From Spartinivicinus ruber (GTDB lineage: Bacteria > Pseudomonadota > Gammaproteobacteria > Pseudomonadales > Zooshikellaceae): 64,000 nucleotides of DNA. How positions within the stretch are numbered: the stretch's first letter is position 1; each line of letters begins with the position of its first letter. The stretch covers positions 5,424,354 through 5,488,353 of the forward strand of contig NZ_CP048878.1 of assembly GCF_011009015.1 (NCBI RefSeq). The letters run 5' to 3'. Below are positions 45,994 through 54,106 of the stretch, in pieces. Below the pieces are notes generated by a model that was not told the DNA's origin, did not search any database, and saw nothing but the letters and a program-made list of their open reading frames with translations. The translations under genes were made by a program, and so were the position numbers.

Positions 45994-46746
45994 TTATGTT
46001 AATGTTGTGAAAATAACGGATACGCTTGTGTAATTTACTCTGTTATCAGGGAATGTCATATCCTTAATAAGCGTACCATTAGTGTTGTAGTTATAAATAT
46101 GATTTGCAGAAGTCACATACAAGTCATTTTCTGGCCCTGCAGCAATACCACTAATGTTAAAGCCAGTGTTTGTATAGGACAACTGATTTAGGTTTAAGTC
46201 ACGAATGGTAAAGCCTTCTTGCGAGCCATTATATGATGCATAAACCCGATCACCAATAACAGTAACATCAGTGTAATTAATAGAACTGACAGGAAAGTTC
46301 ATATCTTTTATCAATGTACCATCTGTCCTGTAATGATAAATATGATTAGCCGCTGTCACATACACATCATTATCAGGGCCTGCAGCAATACCACTGGCTT
46401 TAACGCCAGTATTAAAATAAGACTGTTGATTCAAGTTTAAATCACGAACTGTTACACCCAACTGGGAGCCTTCATAAGCAGCATAGACTTTATTCCCCTT
46501 TACAATAACACTGGTATAGACAATACCACCATCTGGAAAGGTCATATCTTTAATTAACTTCCCATTGTTATCATAGTGAAATATATGATTATTTGATGTC
46601 AAATATACGTCATTATTGGGCCCTGCAGCAATGCCACTAAAGTTAAAATCCGTACCAACAAAAGACAATTGATTTAGCTGAAAATCACGGATAGTAAATC
46701 CTCTTTGTGATCCATTATAAGACGCATAGACATTGTTATTACTCAT
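45994..46746 (-). CDS. protein of three 81-residue tandem repeats
   Basis: A 250-aa protein made of three consecutive 81-residue repeats beginning at residues 6, 87 and 168 (VYASYNGSQRGFTIRDFQLNQ, VYAAYEGSQLGVTVRDLNLNQ, VYASYNGSQEGFTIRDLNLNQ). Each repeat ends with GIAAGPxNDVYxT and LIKDMxFP. The strand-rich pattern suggests beta-propeller-like blades, two per repeat. No signal peptide; only five residues precede repeat 1. The last few residues (IFTTLT) differ from the repeat, so it ends abruptly. DNA-level repeats of 243 bp make copy-number change likely. Function unknown. Confidence 0.75.
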   Translation of the reverse strand: MSNNNVYASYNGSQRGFTIRDFQLNQLSFVGTDFNFSGIAAGPNNDVYLTSNNHIFHYDNNGKLIKDMTFPDGGIVYTSVIVKGNKVYAAYEGSQLGVTVRDLNLNQQSYFNTGVKASGIAAGPDNDVYVTAANHIYHYRTDGTLIKDMNFPVSSINYTDVTVIGDRVYASYNGSQEGFTIRDLNLNQLSYTNTGFNISGIAAGPENDLYVTSANHIYNYNTNGTLIKDMTFPDNRVNYTSVSVIFTTLT

Positions 46747-47062: not shown

Positions 47063-47414
47063 CTACTCTTGAAGAACTACAGCAATAGAATATTCCCAAA
47101 AGTCATGCTCCCCACCAAATATCATGTTCGCTTCCATAACTTTTTCGTTCAAAATAAACTCAGGTTGAAACGAATATCCTCCACAAGTTACTTTCGATCT
47201 AACTAATAATGTTTTTTAAAAGCTTAGTTACAATTGCAGCATAATTGCAATCACTATTTTGGGCAGTTTTCCAGTTACCTTCTGATAGTTTCACCTCAAA
47301 TGAAGAAAACAAATTATCATTATGTTTTATTTTAGAGCTTACTATATACTCTTGAGTTGCCTTAACATTCATACTTAAAAACAAAGCAAATAAAATAACT
47401 ATTTTTTTAATCAC
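47063..47414 (-). pseudogene. small secreted protein, frameshifted
   Basis: Starts with GTG 47412-47414 after AGAGGTAG. The signal peptide is MIKKIVILFALFLSMNVKA, and the frame stops after 71 codons at 47199. Removing one base from the run of six T on the plus strand (47211-47216) restores an open frame continuing TLLVRSKVTCGGYSFQPEF ... GGEHDFWEYSIAVVLQE to a stop at 47063-47065, about 117 aa in all. The joined product looks like a small periplasmic protein with one or two disulfides; no family was recognised. Either a pseudogene or a homopolymer error. Confidence 0.65.
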
Positions 47415-47793: not shown

Positions 47794-50700
47794 ATGTCAG
47801 AAGAAATGAACACTATTACAACAAATGCATTTCAATACTCTAATCACTTAAGTAGCACGGTAGACCCACGAACAGGCATGTATCGCCTACAAATACAGCT
47901 ATCCCATCTACTTGGCAGTTTATTAATGGGTCCTGAATTTAGTTTTTTTATTCAGTATCATTTTTTAACCAATGAAAACCTAGGATTTGGCGAAGGCTGG
48001 TTACATAATTTATCCCGATATGACCGTAAAAACCGCCAACTTCATTTAGGACAAGGTCAAAGCTATCATGTATTACCATTCCATATCACTGATGACAATG
48101 AAATCGAGCTAGAGTTACTTTATGCAAACTCTCATGAGTTTAAAGCCTATGCACTTGCTAGTGGCGGTATCAAAATACAGTACAAAGCAGGAACATGTGA
48201 ATTCTTAAATCCAGAAGGTTTTTTAGAAAACATTCAACAGTTAGACGGCAGAAGACTTTTAATTAACTATTATTCACCTATCAGAAGAGGAAGAATCAAA
48301 TCAATCACTGATGATCATGGCCAAGCACTTGCTTTTACTTATGATGAAAGCGGCGTTAAAATCGCTAAAAACAGTCAAACAGTAATCTCATTACATATTC
48401 ATCATAATGAATTAATAGGTGCTGTACTTGCAGATAATGCTAGTTATCAGCTGGAATATACCACCATCAGTAATTGTCGAGTAATAAAACAACTCACTCA
48501 TCCACTAGGAGCCATTGAATCATTAACCTACGATTCTGAAGGGCTAAGAACTCCAATAGAGAGCCCATTGCCTACCTTGCCCGCAGTGATTCACCATCGT
48601 ATTTTCGGAAATGACATTACTACTATAAATACAACATATGAATATAGTCGTCACAATTACCTTGGCTTTGCCTCAGGAGCAAAATTCGTTAAACACAAAG
48701 ATAATTTGTACGAGCGCACCCACAACTACCGTTATCAGTCTATAGAAAAACGTGGTGATCAAGCAGTGACTCGGATTTACAATCGCTTTCATTTACTTAT
48801 CATAGAAGAAATACTTGATACTAATGAGAATATTATTATAGCTCGCCGCCAAATAGAGTATACAGCAGATTGCACCAAACCCTTTGATGAACAGCCAGCA
48901 GCCTATGCACTACCAATCAGAGATGTTACTACTTATTTTAATGATAATGGCGAACAACGATCAGAAACTTACCATTATGAATATGACAAATATGGCAATT
49001 TAGTATCTTCAATAGACCCTTTTGGTATTACTCAACGTTACGAGTATTATTCAGCACAAGGTGAAAATGGCTGCCCACCCTCTCCTACTCGAACCCCAAT
49101 TTACTTAAAACAAAAGCATATCTTCCCATCAGAAAAATATGCGATAGGAACGGAAGAAATTCTAATTCATAAATACAGTTATACTCCATTCCCAAGCATT
49201 ACTGTTATTGACGAAAACCCTATTTCCAGTGCCTTTTTATCAAAGCCGTTACCATTTGCATTATTAGCCTCAGAAACAGTTTTTACTAATAAAGGCCTAC
49301 CAATATATCAACGCTCTATTACTTATTTTAATACACCAAATAATCACTTACTCCATGGGCGTATTGAAAAAGAAAATTTACTAGTAGGAAGTCGCAATGC
49401 TGTTGATCAATATACTTATCAAAAAACAGGTGAGAGTATTCAAACTATTTTGCACTGTTTTATTGATGGAGAATCACAATACCAAGAAACTATTTTCAAA
49501 CACATAAGTAGTGGTAGAAAAATAGTCACTATTGATAAATATGGCGTTACCACAAAATTTACGTACGACTCTTTATCACGACTAAGTAAAGAAATAACTC
49601 GTGTTAACAGCCCTTATCAATCAGAATGCAACTATATTTACAAATTAGAAGAAAATAAAAAATACTATACGATTACAAACACTTCAGCTCATATAGAAAA
49701 ATTTCTTGTTGATGGACTTGGTCGAATCAAGCAAGTGATGAAAACGGATGCTTCAGGCATCCTACAAATTTATGAAAGCAGGACCTATAATTCACAAGGC
49801 CAATTATCTTCTATTACGTTATACGATACAAATAGTGAACAACAAGAGCAGCAGTATACAACCCATTTTAAATATGATATTTGGGGAGAAGTATATAAGG
49901 AAATACTGCCAACAGGACTATCACAGGTAAAGAAAATTGACAAAGTTACAAACACGCTAACTCAATACTTAGAATCCGTAAAGGGAAAAAGAATACAGTT
50001 AAAAACTACTCAATTAAATGAATCACAACAACCCACTGAAATTAACATCAATGAACAAACTATAAAGCAATTTTATGATGGGTTCGGAAGACTGATTGAA
50101 GAACAAGGCCGCTATGATGTTCCTGTATATTACAAGTATGATGTACAAGGGCGGCTAATTCAAGAATCAATCAATGATATATTAACTATCGATAAACACT
50201 ACGACCCAAACTCTCTAGATGAGTGGCTGATTGAAATAGTAGTGAATAACACTACGGTAGGTAAGCGCACTTACGACAAATTAGGTAGAATTAGCTCAGA
50301 AACAAAATTGGGATTATCGCCCACCTATTTTACATACGCACACCAATGGCCAGAACCAACCCGAACTGAATACCCAAACCAAGTTATCATTGAAAAAGAG
50401 TTAGATATTACTCTTGGGTTACCACTAAAAGAACTCAGTTCAGATCAATCTATCAATAACATATTTAAGTATACAAAGCCAACAGGTGAGTTAGCGTCAG
50501 TCACAAATCCCAATTTGCAAAGATGTATGGAATATCAAACAGACGGTTTGCTCAAAGCTGAAAAACAAGGTGAGCATCAAGTAAATTATCAGTATTCACG
50601 GCAAGGAAATATTCTATCAATAACAGACTTTTTTAAAAATACAGAGCAACGAGCATATGACAAAAATGGTCGCTTATCAAAAATCATTCAAGATCAAAGT

Positions 50701-51660
50701 ATCGTTGAGTTCTACTATGATGAGTTTGACCAAGTTAACAAGGAAGTACTGTTCACTCAATCAGGACAATTAGTTATTCATCAATATTTTTACGATGAGT
50801 ATACTCGACTTACTCAAAAAATATCGCTCATCGATCATGTCATTGTTTGTCGACAGTCATTCACCTATAACACACAAAATAAATTAATTAAAAAGCAACT
50901 AACCGATGAAAATGGCAAGACAACAACTGAACAATATCACTATGACTCACTAGGTAGACTAAGTGAATACCACTCACATGGGCCAAATGCTCCTCGATAT
51001 AAAGACAACAACGATCCCAATGACACTAAAGATGGTTTGATTCAAAAACAAATTTATCACTACAACCGTTTAGGAGATACTGATCAGTTTATCGTAGAGT
51101 ATCTAAAAAATGGTTGTACATATATCAAAACTCAGCATTTTTCTTACCACGATAATTGCTTGGGGCAATTACAATCTATTACTAGCAATACAACTATAAC
51201 AAACCTTCACGATATAGCTAACAACAGTGAACGACTCACTAACTTCGCAGAAAAACTCGCTATCAGTTATGATAACAATGGCAACATCATTAAAGATGAG
51301 CAAGGTGTACAATATCAATATAATGCGCTTAATCAAGTTACCAAGCTATTTAATGCTGATGGTCAACAGGTTGTGAACTATTTATATGATGGATTAGGGC
51401 AACAAGTCACCTGTGTTATACCTAATCAACCACCTCACCAGCAATTCTTTTCCCAGCATCAACCAATTAATGAGTCTCAAGGCGACTGGACTAGTCGTAG
51501 ATTAAATGGGAATCATGGAATTCTACAAAGAACAGTTCAAAGTCAAACTGGGCAAATTGCAGATATTATGGTTACTGACCACCAAAAAAGCGCTATTTAT
51601 TCAATTCAAGGAAATATTCTCAATAAAATAAGTTACCAGCCATTTGGTAATAGCTATTAA
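47794..51660 (+). CDS. Rhs/YD-repeat protein lacking the C-terminal core
   Basis: A 1288-aa protein of the Rhs/TccC class. The N-terminal region (DPRTGMYRLQIQLSHLLGS, LGFGEGWLHNLSRYD) resembles insecticidal-toxin-type Rhs starts. Many YD repeats follow, for example YDKYGNLVSSIDPFG, YDSLSRLSKEITR, YDGFGRLIEEQGRYD, YDSLGRLSEYHSHG and YDNNGNIIKDEQGV. It ends at NKISYQPFGNSY, exactly where family members continue into the core-associated block (GxxxDxxTGxYHLGNGYR). That missing block occurs in the gene at 52925. No signal peptide, PAAR or VgrG part. Expected to form a beta-cocoon shell that holds a toxin. Confidence 0.88.
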   Translation: MSEEMNTITTNAFQYSNHLSSTVDPRTGMYRLQIQLSHLLGSLLMGPEFSFFIQYHFLTNENLGFGEGWLHNLSRYDRKNRQLHLGQGQSYHVLPFHITDDNEIELELLYANSHEFKAYALASGGIKIQYKAGTCEFLNPEGFLENIQQLDGRRLLINYYSPIRRGRIKSITDDHGQALAFTYDESGVKIAKNSQTVISLHIHHNELIGAVLADNASYQLEYTTISNCRVIKQLTHPLGAIESLTYDSEGLRTPIESPLPTLPAVIHHRIFGNDITTINTTYEYSRHNYLGFASGAKFVKHKDNLYERTHNYRYQSIEKRGDQAVTRIYNRFHLLIIEEILDTNENIIIARRQIEYTADCTKPFDEQPAAYALPIRDVTTYFNDNGEQRSETYHYEYDKYGNLVSSIDPFGITQRYEYYSAQGENGCPPSPTRTPIYLKQKHIFPSEKYAIGTEEILIHKYSYTPFPSITVIDENPISSAFLSKPLPFALLASETVFTNKGLPIYQRSITYFNTPNNHLLHGRIEKENLLVGSRNAVDQYTYQKTGESIQTILHCFIDGESQYQETIFKHISSGRKIVTIDKYGVTTKFTYDSLSRLSKEITRVNSPYQSECNYIYKLEENKKYYTITNTSAHIEKFLVDGLGRIKQVMKTDASGILQIYESRTYNSQGQLSSITLYDTNSEQQEQQYTTHFKYDIWGEVYKEILPTGLSQVKKIDKVTNTLTQYLESVKGKRIQLKTTQLNESQQPTEININEQTIKQFYDGFGRLIEEQGRYDVPVYYKYDVQGRLIQESINDILTIDKHYDPNSLDEWLIEIVVNNTTVGKRTYDKLGRISSETKLGLSPTYFTYAHQWPEPTRTEYPNQVIIEKELDITLGLPLKELSSDQSINNIFKYTKPTGELASVTNPNLQRCMEYQTDGLLKAEKQGEHQVNYQYSRQGNILSITDFFKNTEQRAYDKNGRLSKIIQDQSIVEFYYDEFDQVNKEVLFTQSGQLVIHQYFYDEYTRLTQKISLIDHVIVCRQSFTYNTQNKLIKKQLTDENGKTTTEQYHYDSLGRLSEYHSHGPNAPRYKDNNDPNDTKDGLIQKQIYHYNRLGDTDQFIVEYLKNGCTYIKTQHFSYHDNCLGQLQSITSNTTITNLHDIANNSERLTNFAEKLAISYDNNGNIIKDEQGVQYQYNALNQVTKLFNADGQQVVNYLYDGLGQQVTCVIPNQPPHQQFFSQHQPINESQGDWTSRRLNGNHGILQRTVQSQTGQIADIMVTDHQKSAIYSIQGNILNKISYQPFGNSY

Positions 51661-51707
51661 TAACAATAAATGAAGTAAAAAACTCATATTTAAAAAAAGG
51701 TAATATT

Positions 51708-52919
51708 ATGGCTTATATAAAACCAATTAACATCCTATCAATAGCAATTAGTAATATAATCATTGGAGCGGCTTTTGCAGGATCATTAGATGCCGACCAC
51801 TATGAAATTCAAGATATTCGGGTAGAAACAGACCTTACTCATGGCCAAGCTTATCAAATTTATGCTAATGGTAAAATGCAAGCACCCGTTTATATAAAAG
51901 TCAAAGCTATTAACCCTACAACAAGAAAACCTATTACTATACCAACCGATGAATTAATTTCAGCTACATATTTATTTGGCAAACAATCAGGACTAAATTT
52001 TACTTATAATCAGTATTTTTCTGATTCATATGATAAACATTGGTTTTATACTGTAACAGAAAATCAATACCAACATACAGTACCCCGTTCAGCAGGTATT
52101 ATTCGTAGATCTGTTAGCTCATCTGAGACAACTATTCGTAATAATCCTCGGCTAACTAGCGGTTGGTCACAACTAACCTACTGGGTATCAACAAACGAAA
52201 CACACTACAGTAAACATGTATGTGCTGAGGTTTCTATTAATAATGGTGTAACAGTTAGTAGTTGCGACATGTTGTATGATGAGTATGCAACTATCAGCTC
52301 TATAGACCCTTTACAATACCGTGCTGAAGACTTTAGTTTTGACTTTCATTACTTAAAAAATACTGACACGTGGTATGTTGGCTATTGGCAGCTCACTCCC
52401 AAAGATAAACAAATTAAAATTTATGGCTTAGAATGGGAAAACCCTCTGCAAGAAGGTAACCATTTTTTTAGAGCAATGGACTACTTTCGGCCTGGAGGTA
52501 GTTTACTAAGATACAACAGCAACATAACTGCTTACTCTTTAATCCTTTATCCCTATAAACCCTCTATTGAACCTCAAACAATTAGTGACTATGTACGTAT
52601 CTGGAATATTGAAGATAAAAAACGAGAAGACTACCACTTTGAGCTACCTATCTCGACTAGCAATGTAAAGTTTGTGCAAGGAAAAGGTAATTATGATGAC
52701 TATAAAACATGTATTTACATAACACGAAATCATTGCAGTCATACACGACAAAATGGGCATTATGTAAACTTGACCAGTAATGACTCTTATCACTATGACC
52801 TTCGTCCAAAATTCAAAGTATTTGATCAATTTGGTAATGCTGCTCAACTGAAGTTAGTGGATAGCAATACTATTGCGGGCTTGGGATGGGATAATTATCA
52901 AATTAAAGATGATGAGTAA
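51708..52919 (+). CDS. exported protein inside the Rhs cassette, unknown function
   Basis: A 403-aa protein with a Sec-type signal peptide (INILSIAISNIIIGAAFAG, cleavage near residue 26). The mature part is strand-rich and tyrosine-rich: a first beta-sandwich-like unit (YEIQDIRVETDLTHGQAYQIYANG, VKVKAINPTTRKPIT), a second around TSGWSQLTYWVSTNET and a C-terminal part with two Cys pairs (CIYITRNHC). GGTAAT precedes the ATG. It lies between the two halves of an Rhs protein, 47 bp after the first and 5 bp before the second. It could be an immunity protein, adaptor or secreted partner; no family recognised. Confidence 0.7.
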   Translation: MAYIKPINILSIAISNIIIGAAFAGSLDADHYEIQDIRVETDLTHGQAYQIYANGKMQAPVYIKVKAINPTTRKPITIPTDELISATYLFGKQSGLNFTYNQYFSDSYDKHWFYTVTENQYQHTVPRSAGIIRRSVSSSETTIRNNPRLTSGWSQLTYWVSTNETHYSKHVCAEVSINNGVTVSSCDMLYDEYATISSIDPLQYRAEDFSFDFHYLKNTDTWYVGYWQLTPKDKQIKIYGLEWENPLQEGNHFFRAMDYFRPGGSLLRYNSNITAYSLILYPYKPSIEPQTISDYVRIWNIEDKKREDYHFELPISTSNVKFVQGKGNYDDYKTCIYITRNHCSHTRQNGHYVNLTSNDSYHYDLRPKFKVFDQFGNAAQLKLVDSNTIAGLGWDNYQIKDDE

Positions 52920-52924
52920 TAACA

Positions 52925-54106
52925 GTGAAGTTAACTAACATTTTTTTTAACCAGAAGTTGCCAAGTACATCATTGGAAGATTTACCCAATTTATCACGAC
53001 GGGGATTTTTGATTAAATCTTCCCTATTTGTTACTTCAGCTTCGTTATTTACTACCAGCATTCCTGTTCATGGCGCACTCAGCCTAGCTAATAACCGTGA
53101 ACTACCAAAGCTAATTATTTTACAAAACCCCATTCGCTTTACTGGTGAGCACTATGATTCCATTGCCCAAGTTTACCATTTAGGCAATGGCTATCGTATA
53201 TTTAACCCTCGGCTAATGCGGTTTCACTCAATTGACTCTTTGAGTCCTTTTAATGATGGTGGGTTTAATTGTTATTCTTACTGCCTCAATGACCCAATTA
53301 ATTTAGTTGATCCAACCGGACATTTAAGCTGGCAGGCAGGTGTTTCCATTGGCCTAGGCGTTTTAGCTTTGGTGATTGGCGTCGTTACCCTTGGTGCTGG
53401 AATAGCAGCATCAGCAGGCTTAATGACTGGAGCCGCTGCTATTACAACAGCTGCCGCATTCAAAGCGGGCTTAGCAGTTACATCAGGCGTAACAGGCATG
53501 ATTAGTGGTGGATTAGGTATTGCCTCTGGCGCAATTGAAGAAGCAAACCCTACAGTTTCATCACAATTAGGCTATGCAGCTCTAGCATTTGGAATTACAT
53601 CTGCTGTTTCCGGTATTGGCTCACTTATTGCCGGCGCAAAAGTGGCAGCAAATGCTAGCGGTCAACTCATTAGAAGTCCACTAAATCCCAGTTTAATTAC
53701 CTCCCCTAATTCTGGGCAAGTCACCTTAAAATTAACAGATAGCATCGCCCGCTATAACCCAAGGTTTGTTGCAAAATCTCTTCATCGAGCATTTCATAGT
53801 AGCGAACCCTTCCAACGTATTGCCATCACAGGTGATAGAGCGCCCGCTTTATTCAGAGGAACAAACTTTTTAGCAAACTCATATGCTCAGCAATTATCTA
53901 ACCAAACAGGAAAACAGGTTATCGAACTTGCCCGCAAAGGAAGCGCTGCTATACCACAGTCGAGAAGAGCCAGCAGTGTACCAAGCATTATTAATGCATC
54001 CACAGCCATTACCAAAAGTCCAATGTGGACACCCGCTCGTTTTTTTGGCGTATCCCGGGTAATGTACTCAAGTGGCATGATCGGTAGATCATTATTGGTA
54101 GAATAA
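52925..54106 (+). CDS. Rhs core-associated domain plus C-terminal toxin-like region, with Tat signal
   Basis: A 393-aa protein starting with GTG five bases after the upstream stop, so probably translationally coupled. Residues 24-32 (SRRGFLIKS) and the following hydrophobic stretch to PVHGA form a clear twin-arginine signal. Residues 69-133 are the Rhs core end (IRFTGEHYDSIAQVYHLGNG, RFHSIDSLSPF, YCLNDPINLVDPTGH). An Ala/Gly-rich hydrophobic region (about 137-255) typical of TccC-like variable tails follows, then a 110-residue C-terminal domain (ITGDRAPALFRGTN, NSYAQQLSNQTGKQVIEL) that is the likely effector. No signal-bearing Rhs tip of this kind is known to me. Confidence 0.82.
   Translation: MKLTNIFFNQKLPSTSLEDLPNLSRRGFLIKSSLFVTSASLFTTSIPVHGALSLANNRELPKLIILQNPIRFTGEHYDSIAQVYHLGNGYRIFNPRLMRFHSIDSLSPFNDGGFNCYSYCLNDPINLVDPTGHLSWQAGVSIGLGVLALVIGVVTLGAGIAASAGLMTGAAAITTAAAFKAGLAVTSGVTGMISGGLGIASGAIEEANPTVSSQLGYAALAFGITSAVSGIGSLIAGAKVAANASGQLIRSPLNPSLITSPNSGQVTLKLTDSIARYNPRFVAKSLHRAFHSSEPFQRIAITGDRAPALFRGTNFLANSYAQQLSNQTGKQVIELARKGSAAIPQSRRASSVPSIINASTAITKSPMWTPARFFGVSRVMYSSGMIGRSLLVE

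What the first reader, a model, noticed from the sequence alone, without database searches (positions are those of the whole stretch)
47794..54106. Naturally split Rhs/YD-repeat toxin: shell and core end on separate genes, with a Tat signal on the C-terminal piece
The 1288-aa YD-repeat protein stops at SYQPFGNSY, exactly where Rhs proteins normally run into the core end. That end (YHLGNGYR, DPTGH) sits in a third gene 1.26 kb downstream, with its own GTG start, and it carries a clean twin-arginine signal (SRRGFLIKS). Between them lies a gene for a Sec-exported protein. Standard Rhs needs shell and core in one chain so the core-end aspartyl protease can release the toxin. A split version sent to the periplasm by Tat would assemble and deliver differently, perhaps folding the toxic tip in the cytoplasm before export.
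Basis: partly seen in the sequence, partly recalled or inferred. Interest (0 to 1): 0.85.

Follow-up and report, generated by a model that had tools for sequence, protein, structure and literature searches.

The report
Split Rhs toxin with detachable cartridges
A bacterial toxin of the Rhs family, normally one long protein, is here made as an empty shell and a separate toxin-bearing plug that carries its own export tag, and the same arrangement turns up in other bacteria, in one case with two different plugs next to a single shell.

Summary
The window carries a 1288-aa YD-repeat shell ending three residues after YQPFG, a 403-aa Sec-type exported protein, and a 393-aa protein with a twin-arginine signal, the Rhs core end and a 260-aa cargo. 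It is not decay: 17 uninterrupted split loci were read, including predicted-conjugative Vibrio plasmids. In 17 of 17 the shell stops 0-15 residues after the same motif; 19 of 19 cartridges have an N-terminal twin-arginine-type motif (16 RR, 3 KR) and the PxxxxDPxG cleavage motif. In four of five fused relatives, shell and cartridge together cover the whole Rhs up to the plug and beyond, bar a 6-11-residue linker. The middle gene is a family unknown to Pfam/NCBIfam: beside split Rhs it has an export signal and a cysteine pair (21 of 21), beside fused Rhs not (0 of 8). Cargo tails form 10 BLAST groups; one genome has two tandem cartridges, 231/240 identical and then different, beside one shell. 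Best reading: a reloadable Rhs toxin whose plug docks into a signal-less shell and probably carries it through Tat. Shell export is inferred; the complex (about 185 kDa) exceeds the quoted Tat range.

The parts
47794..51660 (+). YD-repeat (Rhs) shell, 1288 aa, 149 kDa; no N-terminal signal recognised (hydropathy and inspection only); no PAAR or other delivery domain matched
   Evidence: PF05593 94 bits and TIGR01643 81.4 bits, no other family; whole profile aligns to residues 10-1266 of a fused Rhs; size
51634..51660 (+). Shell C-terminus YQPFG-NSY-stop: the last barrel motif, 3 residues before the stop
   Evidence: 17 of 17 split shells end 0-15 residues after this kind of motif
51708..52919 (+). 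Accessory protein, 403 aa, N-terminal Sec-type signal (about 51708-51782), family with IYANG(K/R)MQ-like and D-x-(Y/F)GN-like motifs; mostly beta in the more confident N-terminal half of a low-confidence model
   Evidence: no Pfam/NCBIfam family over its cut-off
52221..52265 (+). Codons Cys172 to Cys186 of the accessory: a pair kept beside split Rhs and absent beside fused Rhs
   Evidence: 21 of 21 versus 0 of 8
52925..54106 (+). Tat-type plug-cargo cartridge, 393 aa, GTG start, 5 nt after the accessory stop
52994..53017 (+). Twin-arginine motif SRRGFLIK (residues 24-31), followed by a moderately hydrophobic stretch
53120..53323 (+). C-terminal plug / Rhs core end (residues 66-133), with PINLVDPTGH; Asp129 codon 53309-53311
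   Evidence: TIGR03696; residues 67-133 align to solved Rhs core ends 8h8a 1090-1151 and, from 69, Tse5 8cp6 1060-1120; PxxxxDPxG in 19 of 19
53324..54106 (+). Cargo, residues 134-393: hydrophobic Gly/Ala-rich stretch, then a conserved tail of unknown fold; 26.3 kDa, pI 11.2
   Evidence: the AlphaFold model is useless (mean pLDDT 37.0)

Best explanation
This is a three-part Rhs (YD-repeat) polymorphic toxin. Gene 1 makes an empty beta-barrel shell. Gene 3 makes a separate cartridge: a twin-arginine signal, the C-terminal plug with its aspartyl autoprotease motif, and a basic cargo behind it. Gene 2 makes a Sec-exported, probably disulphide-bonded partner that belongs to the shell rather than to any one cargo. 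SHOWN by sequence: the cut falls between barrel and plug; it is conserved and under purifying selection; the Tat-type motif and the accessory's export signal go with the split form; the cargo is exchangeable. INFERRED: the plug docks into the shell in the cytoplasm and draws the cargo inside; the Tat system, which exports folded proteins, carries the loaded shell out as a signal-less hitchhiker; the accessory joins it in the periplasm; cleavage at DPTGH frees the cargo inside the shell. The split lets one shell be loaded with different cartridges. The last steps (leaving the cell, target, activity of this window's cargo) are unknown. The confidence is for the whole chain; for 'real split, Tat-targeted toxin cartridge' alone I would say about 0.85.
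For: Complementarity: the shell profile aligns from position 1-3 to 1244/1245 of 1246 on four of five fused Rhs (on the fifth to 1178), the core profile from position 67 or 72; the gap between the two matches in those four is 6-11 residues, and residues 1-66 (Tat plus linker) have no fused counterpart. Core piece 67-133 aligns to solved Rhs core ends. Conservation: 5 of 5 Zooshikellaceae reached, plus a paralogue with order core-shell-acc-acc; Vibrio plasmids with order acc-shell-core; 9 further loci in 7 of the 10 genomes matched among 315. Motifs: 19 of 19 cartridges SRR/NRR/SKR (16 RR, 3 KR) and 17 of 17 shells stopping 0-15 aa after a YxPYG-type motif; PxxxxDPxG 19 of 19. Linker residues 51-65 relaxed (dN/dS 0.29-0.75) against the plug (0.03-0.05), four pairs each. 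Accessory: 21 of 21 beside split Rhs have a hydrophobic N-terminus and the Cys pair; 0 of 8 beside fused Rhs have the pair. TatC in 5 of 5 genomes searched: G000-G003 and one of another family. Cargo polymorphism: 10 BLAST clusters (1e-3) among 19 tails; tandem cartridges in G806 identical at 231 of 240 aligned residues, then 31 of 146; one tail is Scabin-like, PF22596 37.4 bits, cut-off 27. Cargo 20.7-33.8 kDa and pI 8.9-11.5 in 19 of 19, pI of 8 or more in only 3 of 7 fused relatives; TcC cargos need about 20 kDa or more and pI of 8 or more (PMC6868009, passages). Hitchhiker Tat export is known for HybOC and PaoABC (PMC4273604, passages).
Against: No experiment. The shell has no recognised signal, so its export is inference only (its first 60 residues do hold a moderately hydrophobic stretch at about 25-55, mean up to 1.53, within the range of the cartridges' own 1.36-1.64; it begins beyond the usual signal position and was not tested further). 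Shell plus mature cartridge is about 185 kDa against 'up to 150 kDa' for Tat (PMC6708511, passage); an unidentified ~270-kDa band in the PaoABC work leaves the limit open. Pfam's TAT_signal model reaches its cut-off in 1 of 15 cartridges scanned, is under it in 2 and silent in 12, this window's included; no SignalP or TatP was available. Three cartridges have KR. The window family's tail matches no family and is strongly conserved in Zooshikellaceae, unlike a fast-evolving toxin. No conserved immunity gene follows, though in three cases the contig ends within 0.6 kb. Structure prediction of the cartridge failed. The split/accessory correlation may rest on one evolutionary event, and several of the 17 loci are close kin. 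For three of the eight unsignalled accessories (L055, L130, L131) I took an ATG downstream of the longest start; with its longest start L130's has a hydrophobic N-terminus (1.55).
Confidence: 0.5

Rival explanations
1. Split and Tat export are real, but the shell is not a hitchhiker: the cartridge crosses the inner membrane alone and meets the shell only after the shell has left by another route (lysis, vesicles, an unknown secretion path).
For: No recognised signal in the 6 shells inspected, and the complex would exceed the quoted Tat size range. The cartridge has strongly hydrophobic segments at about 136-174.
Against: Tat transports folded substrates (PMC6708511 and others, listing) and the plug is expected to fold only inside a barrel (inference); the plug is the most constrained part of the cartridge; shell and cartridge genes nearly touch where adjacent (gaps -88 to 34 nt).
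Confidence: 0.3
2. The RR motif is not a Tat signal in practice: the N-terminus is a Sec signal or a membrane anchor that keeps the cartridge at the inner membrane.
For: Three KR variants; Pfam TAT_signal over its cut-off in only 1 of 15 cartridges; the hydrophobic stretch is modest.
Against: S24, R25, R26, F28, L29 and S33 are invariant in six proteins down to 38% identity, whereas between residues 2 and 23 only L12 is.
Confidence: 0.12
3. Decay: the core end is a broken-off, orphan Rhs tip and the shell a truncated pseudogene.
For: Orphan Rhs genes are described (listing); G225 carries a decayed Tat-core stub without a shell in its 20-kb stretch, and G774 a weak match with three stops.
Against: 17 uninterrupted loci, all three genes under purifying selection in the family, the same break point, own conserved signal, different gene orders.
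Confidence: 0.02
4. The accessory is an immunity protein or inhibitor rather than part of the delivery apparatus.
For: Near the Rhs genes in the loci counted, sometimes in more than one copy (2 in the G002 paralogue and in one G1016 locus, 3 in G828).
Against: It accompanies shells with cargos of different groups, fused or split; its compartment changes with the split, not with the cargo.
Confidence: 0.15

Closest known systems
Rhs/YD-repeat polymorphic toxins of the T6SS (RhsA of P. protegens, Rhs1 of P. laumondii, Tse5)
   Same: YD-repeat barrel, C-terminal plug with PxxxxDPxG autoprotease motif, variable cargo behind it
   Different: Plug and cargo are a separate gene with a Tat-type signal; no PAAR or N-terminal T6SS region matched in the shell; dedicated exported accessory
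Tc toxins, TcB-TcC cocoon
   Same: Cocoon made of two chains; the C-terminal chain carries autoprotease and cargo (PMC8765631, passages); cargo size and charge fit the published Tc findings
   Different: TcC carries part of the barrel as well (recalled); here the cut is at the barrel/plug boundary. No propeller matched, TcA not searched for; Tat-type signal
Bacterial teneurin-like proteins (PMC13018210)
   Same: YD shells; a figure legend colours predicted signal peptides, one class being TAT/SPI (passage)
   Different: Shell and C-terminal domain in one chain with FN-plug and NHL domains (passages)
Orphan Rhs tips and short Rhs (nine in the P. endophytica genome)
   Same: Stand-alone proteins with a core end and variable C-terminus
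   Different: Those nine (one cut by its contig) begin roughly 85-100 residues earlier, inside the barrel, and show no RR signal; here the cut is at the plug
Tat hitchhiker complexes HybOC and PaoABC (PMC4273604, passages)
   Same: Proposed logic: the small signal-bearing subunit carries out larger signal-less partners
   Different: PaoABC is about 135 kDa and shown; here the complex is proposed, not shown, and about 185 kDa

Membership tests
Rhs/YD-repeat polymorphic toxin | YD/RHS repeat barrel | tested here: met
   PF05593 94 bits, TIGR01643 81.4 bits
Rhs/YD-repeat polymorphic toxin | Rhs-associated core end with autoprotease motif | tested here: met
   TIGR03696 over cut-off in the 15 cartridges scanned; PxxxxDPxG in 19 of 19, a pattern for the first conserved Asp in 18 of 19, not in G893
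Rhs/YD-repeat polymorphic toxin | shell and core end in one chain | tested here: not met
   two genes in 17 of 17 split loci; hence a variant, not a standard member
Rhs/YD-repeat polymorphic toxin | variable C-terminal toxin domains | tested here: met
   10 clusters among 19 tails, tandem cartridges with different ends; not variable among the five Zooshikellaceae orthologues
Rhs/YD-repeat polymorphic toxin | adjacent immunity gene | tested here: inconclusive
   no shared small gene downstream; some contigs end too soon
T6SS Rhs effector | N-terminal PAAR or VgrG linkage | tested here: not met
   no such Pfam match; the shell starts at the barrel; a T6SS gene (TssK/VasE) exists elsewhere in 4 of 5 genomes
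Tc toxin (TcB-TcC) | TcB propeller domain and TcA partner | tested here: inconclusive
   no propeller match in three shells; TcA not searched
Tat substrate | twin-arginine motif, hydrophobic stretch, host TatC | tested here: met
   but Pfam TAT_signal over cut-off in only 1 of 15 scanned
Tat substrate | Tat-dependent export | not testable with these tools
   needs a tatC mutant

The most novel reading that the evidence does not exclude
A reloadable Rhs weapon: a common shell is loaded in trans with exchangeable plug-cargo cartridges, and the Tat translocase exports the whole loaded cocoon because the plug carries the only signal. Tat's folding quality control would then act as the check that only plugged shells leave the cytoplasm, and the Sec-exported accessory completes the particle in the periplasm. 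This would be a route for Rhs toxins that needs neither PAAR/T6SS nor a single giant chain, spread in part on conjugative plasmids.
Probability: 0.45. Interest if true: 0.92.

Novelty: new variant of a known kind. Interest (0 to 1): 0.82.

Why it matters
Rhs proteins are widespread polymorphic toxins, and the well-studied ones are one giant chain, mostly delivered by a T6SS. A cut exactly at the barrel/plug boundary gives a natural in-trans loading system, makes 'how is cargo put into the shell, and can a shell be reloaded' directly testable, and points to Tat as an unexpected export route for a cocoon. The new accessory family, which changes compartment with the split, is a handle on what caps or delivers the particle.

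Tried and rejected
Decay or sequencing artefact: rejected on 17 uninterrupted loci, purifying selection, and gene orders in which the accessory lies between shell and cartridge or a cartridge comes first. Small or overlapping shell/core junctions (-88 to 34 nt) could look like frameshifts, but the cartridge carries a Tat segment with no fused counterpart.

Structure prediction: accessory mean pLDDT 56.6 with a more confident beta-rich N-terminal half; Foldseek's 50 rows shown were mostly antibody and other Ig-like chains, TM at most 0.21 by query, taken as no identification. Cartridge pLDDT 37.0, not used.

Function of this window's cargo: no Pfam or PADLOC match and, in NCBIfam, only the core end. 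MAFFT lays it beside the tails of the G002 paralogue and V. cyclitrophicus that have His...Cys motifs, with the segments around His and Cys missing, but BLAST does not join them; left as a weak hint. The autoprotease role rests on PMC8636562 (passages).

Spread: cartridge profile in 390 genomes of the order, 7 matched at 1e-12, 6 of them by a Tat-bearing piece (one is the decayed G225 stub), in 369 of the class, 1, this genome, and in 37 of G225's family, only G225; the first look scored at most 10 candidates per genome, so these may undercount. Accessory: 8 loci in genome contigs, 7 of 390, 10 of 315, 6 plasmid records, all Vibrio, plus V. cyclitrophicus found through the cartridge, 0 phages. 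Dropped before the split/fused counts: three Shewanella loci (L051, L052, L056) with an exported accessory and no Rhs seen in about 20 kb, G225 L066 (decayed), L127 (accessory on a 6-kb contig), a further accessory copy in G225 (L079), and G372's two fused shells, where no accessory matched. One search flagged one TAA in the G003 shell match; one search shows none there. Direction of change (fission or fusion) is unresolved: no outgroup, long branches.

Print search: (open-licence PMC papers only; listings capped, e.g. 20 of 67, 30 of 136, 25 of 261) showed no paper on a split Rhs with a Tat signal. Titles and abstract starts only, with passages read in PMC8636562, PMC8765631, PMC6708511, PMC4273604, PMC13018210, PMC5660062 (0 hits for Rhs), PMC3482391 (0 hits for TAT or twin-arginine in the 300,000 characters held) and PMC6868009.
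Full report
What is there. The window is G000:C1:5424354-5488353 of a 6.7-Mb genome. Two members of the same family, G003 and G004, have contigs of the same lengths and match positions as records of Zooshikella harenae and Z. ganghwensis; the window's genus is probably Spartinivicinus (recalled from genome size; its family is Zooshikellaceae). Three genes run on the + strand: shell, accessory, cartridge. The shell matches YD repeats only. The cartridge has SRRGFLIK at 24-31, the core end at 66-133 and a 260-residue cargo.

The cut. Profiles of the shell and of the cartridge were aligned separately to five fused relatives. In four of them the shell profile ends 6-11 residues before the cartridge profile begins, and the first 66 residues of the cartridge match nothing. 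In the fifth (L068) the shell profile stops earlier (1178 of 1246). In the Rhs1 structure the barrel is 420-1262 and the C-terminal plug, an aspartyl protease domain, 1263-1357 (PMC8636562, passages). The cartridge segment 67-133 aligns with solved Rhs core ends. So the gene boundary is the barrel/plug boundary. TIGR03696 itself is cut: in the 15 cartridges scanned the match begins at model position 12-16.

Conservation near home. All five family genomes reached have the three genes in the same order. G002 has a second, diverged locus in the order cartridge, shell, accessory, accessory, with SRRQFL. dN/dS within genera is 0.14-0.17 for the shell and 0.07-0.08 for the accessory and the cartridge; within the cartridge it is 0.03-0.05 for the plug, 0.05-0.07 for the tail, 0.13-0.16 for residues 1-50, and 0.29-0.75 for the linker 51-65.

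Conservation further off. A tblastn of the accessory against plasmids hit 6 records, all Vibrio. The V. campbellii pLMB143 stretch is annotated hypothetical protein, RHS repeat protein, RHS core protein, and its core protein carries NRREFLIK. V. cyclitrophicus has the same order, with SKRTFIK. A profile of the accessory against 315 genomes of the order of a Shewanella genome matched 10. Reading 12 stretches from nine of them gave nine more complete split loci in seven genomes, two fused loci in two genomes, and one accessory alone on a 6-kb contig; the tenth genome is the Shewanella itself, with an accessory and no Rhs nearby. The accessory profile was built from both kinds of locus, so it should not favour the split form.

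Totals. 17 split loci with 19 cartridges and 21 accessories; 7 fused loci with 8 accessories. Shells end 0-15 residues after the YxPYG-type motif in 17 of 17. Twin-arginine-type motif: 16 RR and 3 KR of 19. PxxxxDPxG: 19 of 19. Accessories beside split Rhs all have a hydrophobic N-terminus (lowest 12-residue mean 1.42); those beside fused Rhs do not (highest 1.24). The margin is small for one P. endophytica protein, and for L055, L130 and L131 I chose a downstream ATG; with its longest start the L130 accessory would score 1.55. The Cys172/Cys186 pair does not depend on the start: 21 of 21 and 0 of 8. The four signalled accessories of orphan or decayed loci also have the pair, 4 of 4. A cysteine pair that goes with the export signal is what an oxidising compartment would select.

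Evolution. In a tree of 24 shells one branch (97/97) separates split from fused. It fits one change of state, but the tree is unrooted, several branches are long, and either direction is possible. The correlation of split and exported accessory therefore may be one event, kept since; several of the 17 loci are close kin.

Cargo. The last 150 residues of the 19 cargos form 10 BLAST groups at 1e-3. In G806 two cartridges lie in tandem behind one shell: 231 of 240 aligned residues are identical through signal, plug and hydrophobic segment, then 31 of 146. One of them ends in a Scabin-like domain (37.4 bits, cut-off 27; a second model for an ADP-ribosyltransferase toxin subunit also passes, 23.9 against 21.3). 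G828 has two cartridges, one shell and three accessories. All 19 cargos are 20.7-33.8 kDa with pI 8.9-11.5, whereas 4 of 7 fused relatives have pI below 7. Those values meet the size and charge needs found for Tc cocoon cargos (PMC6868009, passages). The window's own cargo is conserved across the family and matches nothing known, so its activity cannot be named.

Mechanism. The plug should need a barrel, so shell and cartridge have to meet. The cartridge and the accessory are exported, by their signals; the shell has none that I recognise. The simplest way to satisfy all three is Tat hitchhiking, which is established for other complexes (PMC4273604, passages) and would use Tat's demand for folded cargo as a loading check. 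Against it stands the size, about 185 kDa, over the 150 kDa quoted for Tat (PMC6708511, passage). Host TatC is present in 5 of 5 genomes searched, four of this family and one other. How the particle leaves the cell, and against whom, is open.

What is new. Papers found describe fused Rhs, TcB-TcC, orphan Rhs, and single-chain teneurin-like proteins, for which a figure legend has a TAT/SPI class of predicted signals (PMC13018210). No title or abstract start in the capped listings of eight searches describes a detached, Tat-tagged plug-cargo cartridge. I file it as a new variant of Rhs polymorphic toxins.

Noticed in passing
G777 (Pseudomonas endophytica), loci L085, L087-L093, L095: This genome holds nine short Rhs proteins (247-366 aa, one cut by its contig) that begin roughly 85-100 residues before the YSPYG-type motif, carry a core end and differ at the C-terminus, without an RR signal. 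A different cut from the one here.
   Followed up: partly
L051, L052, L056 (Shewanella): Exported accessory with the cysteine pair but no Rhs gene seen in the roughly 20-kb stretches; the S. sairae genome has one weak core-like match with three stops elsewhere.
   Followed up: partly
L066 8594-9931 (G225): NRRQFL core-end stub without an ATG, GTG or TTG in frame before the RR, ending 23 residues after DPTG, beside an exported accessory and a second small exported protein; no shell in the 20-kb stretch. The same genome has a fused Rhs with an unsignalled accessory (L067).
   Followed up: partly
L133 6529-9010 (G806): Two tandem cartridges near-identical up to the cargo and then different, with 82 nt between them and so no room for an immunity gene.
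   Followed up: yes
L128 9686-10015 (G1016): A short fragment of a second shell start upstream of the accessory, a sign of local duplication.
   Followed up: no
window 45994-46746 (-): 250-aa protein of three similar repeats (VYASYNGSQ-like), weakly NHL / Vgb-lyase like.
   Followed up: no
window 47199-47414 (-): Small 71-aa ORF with a hydrophobic N-terminus just upstream of the shell; no family.
   Followed up: no
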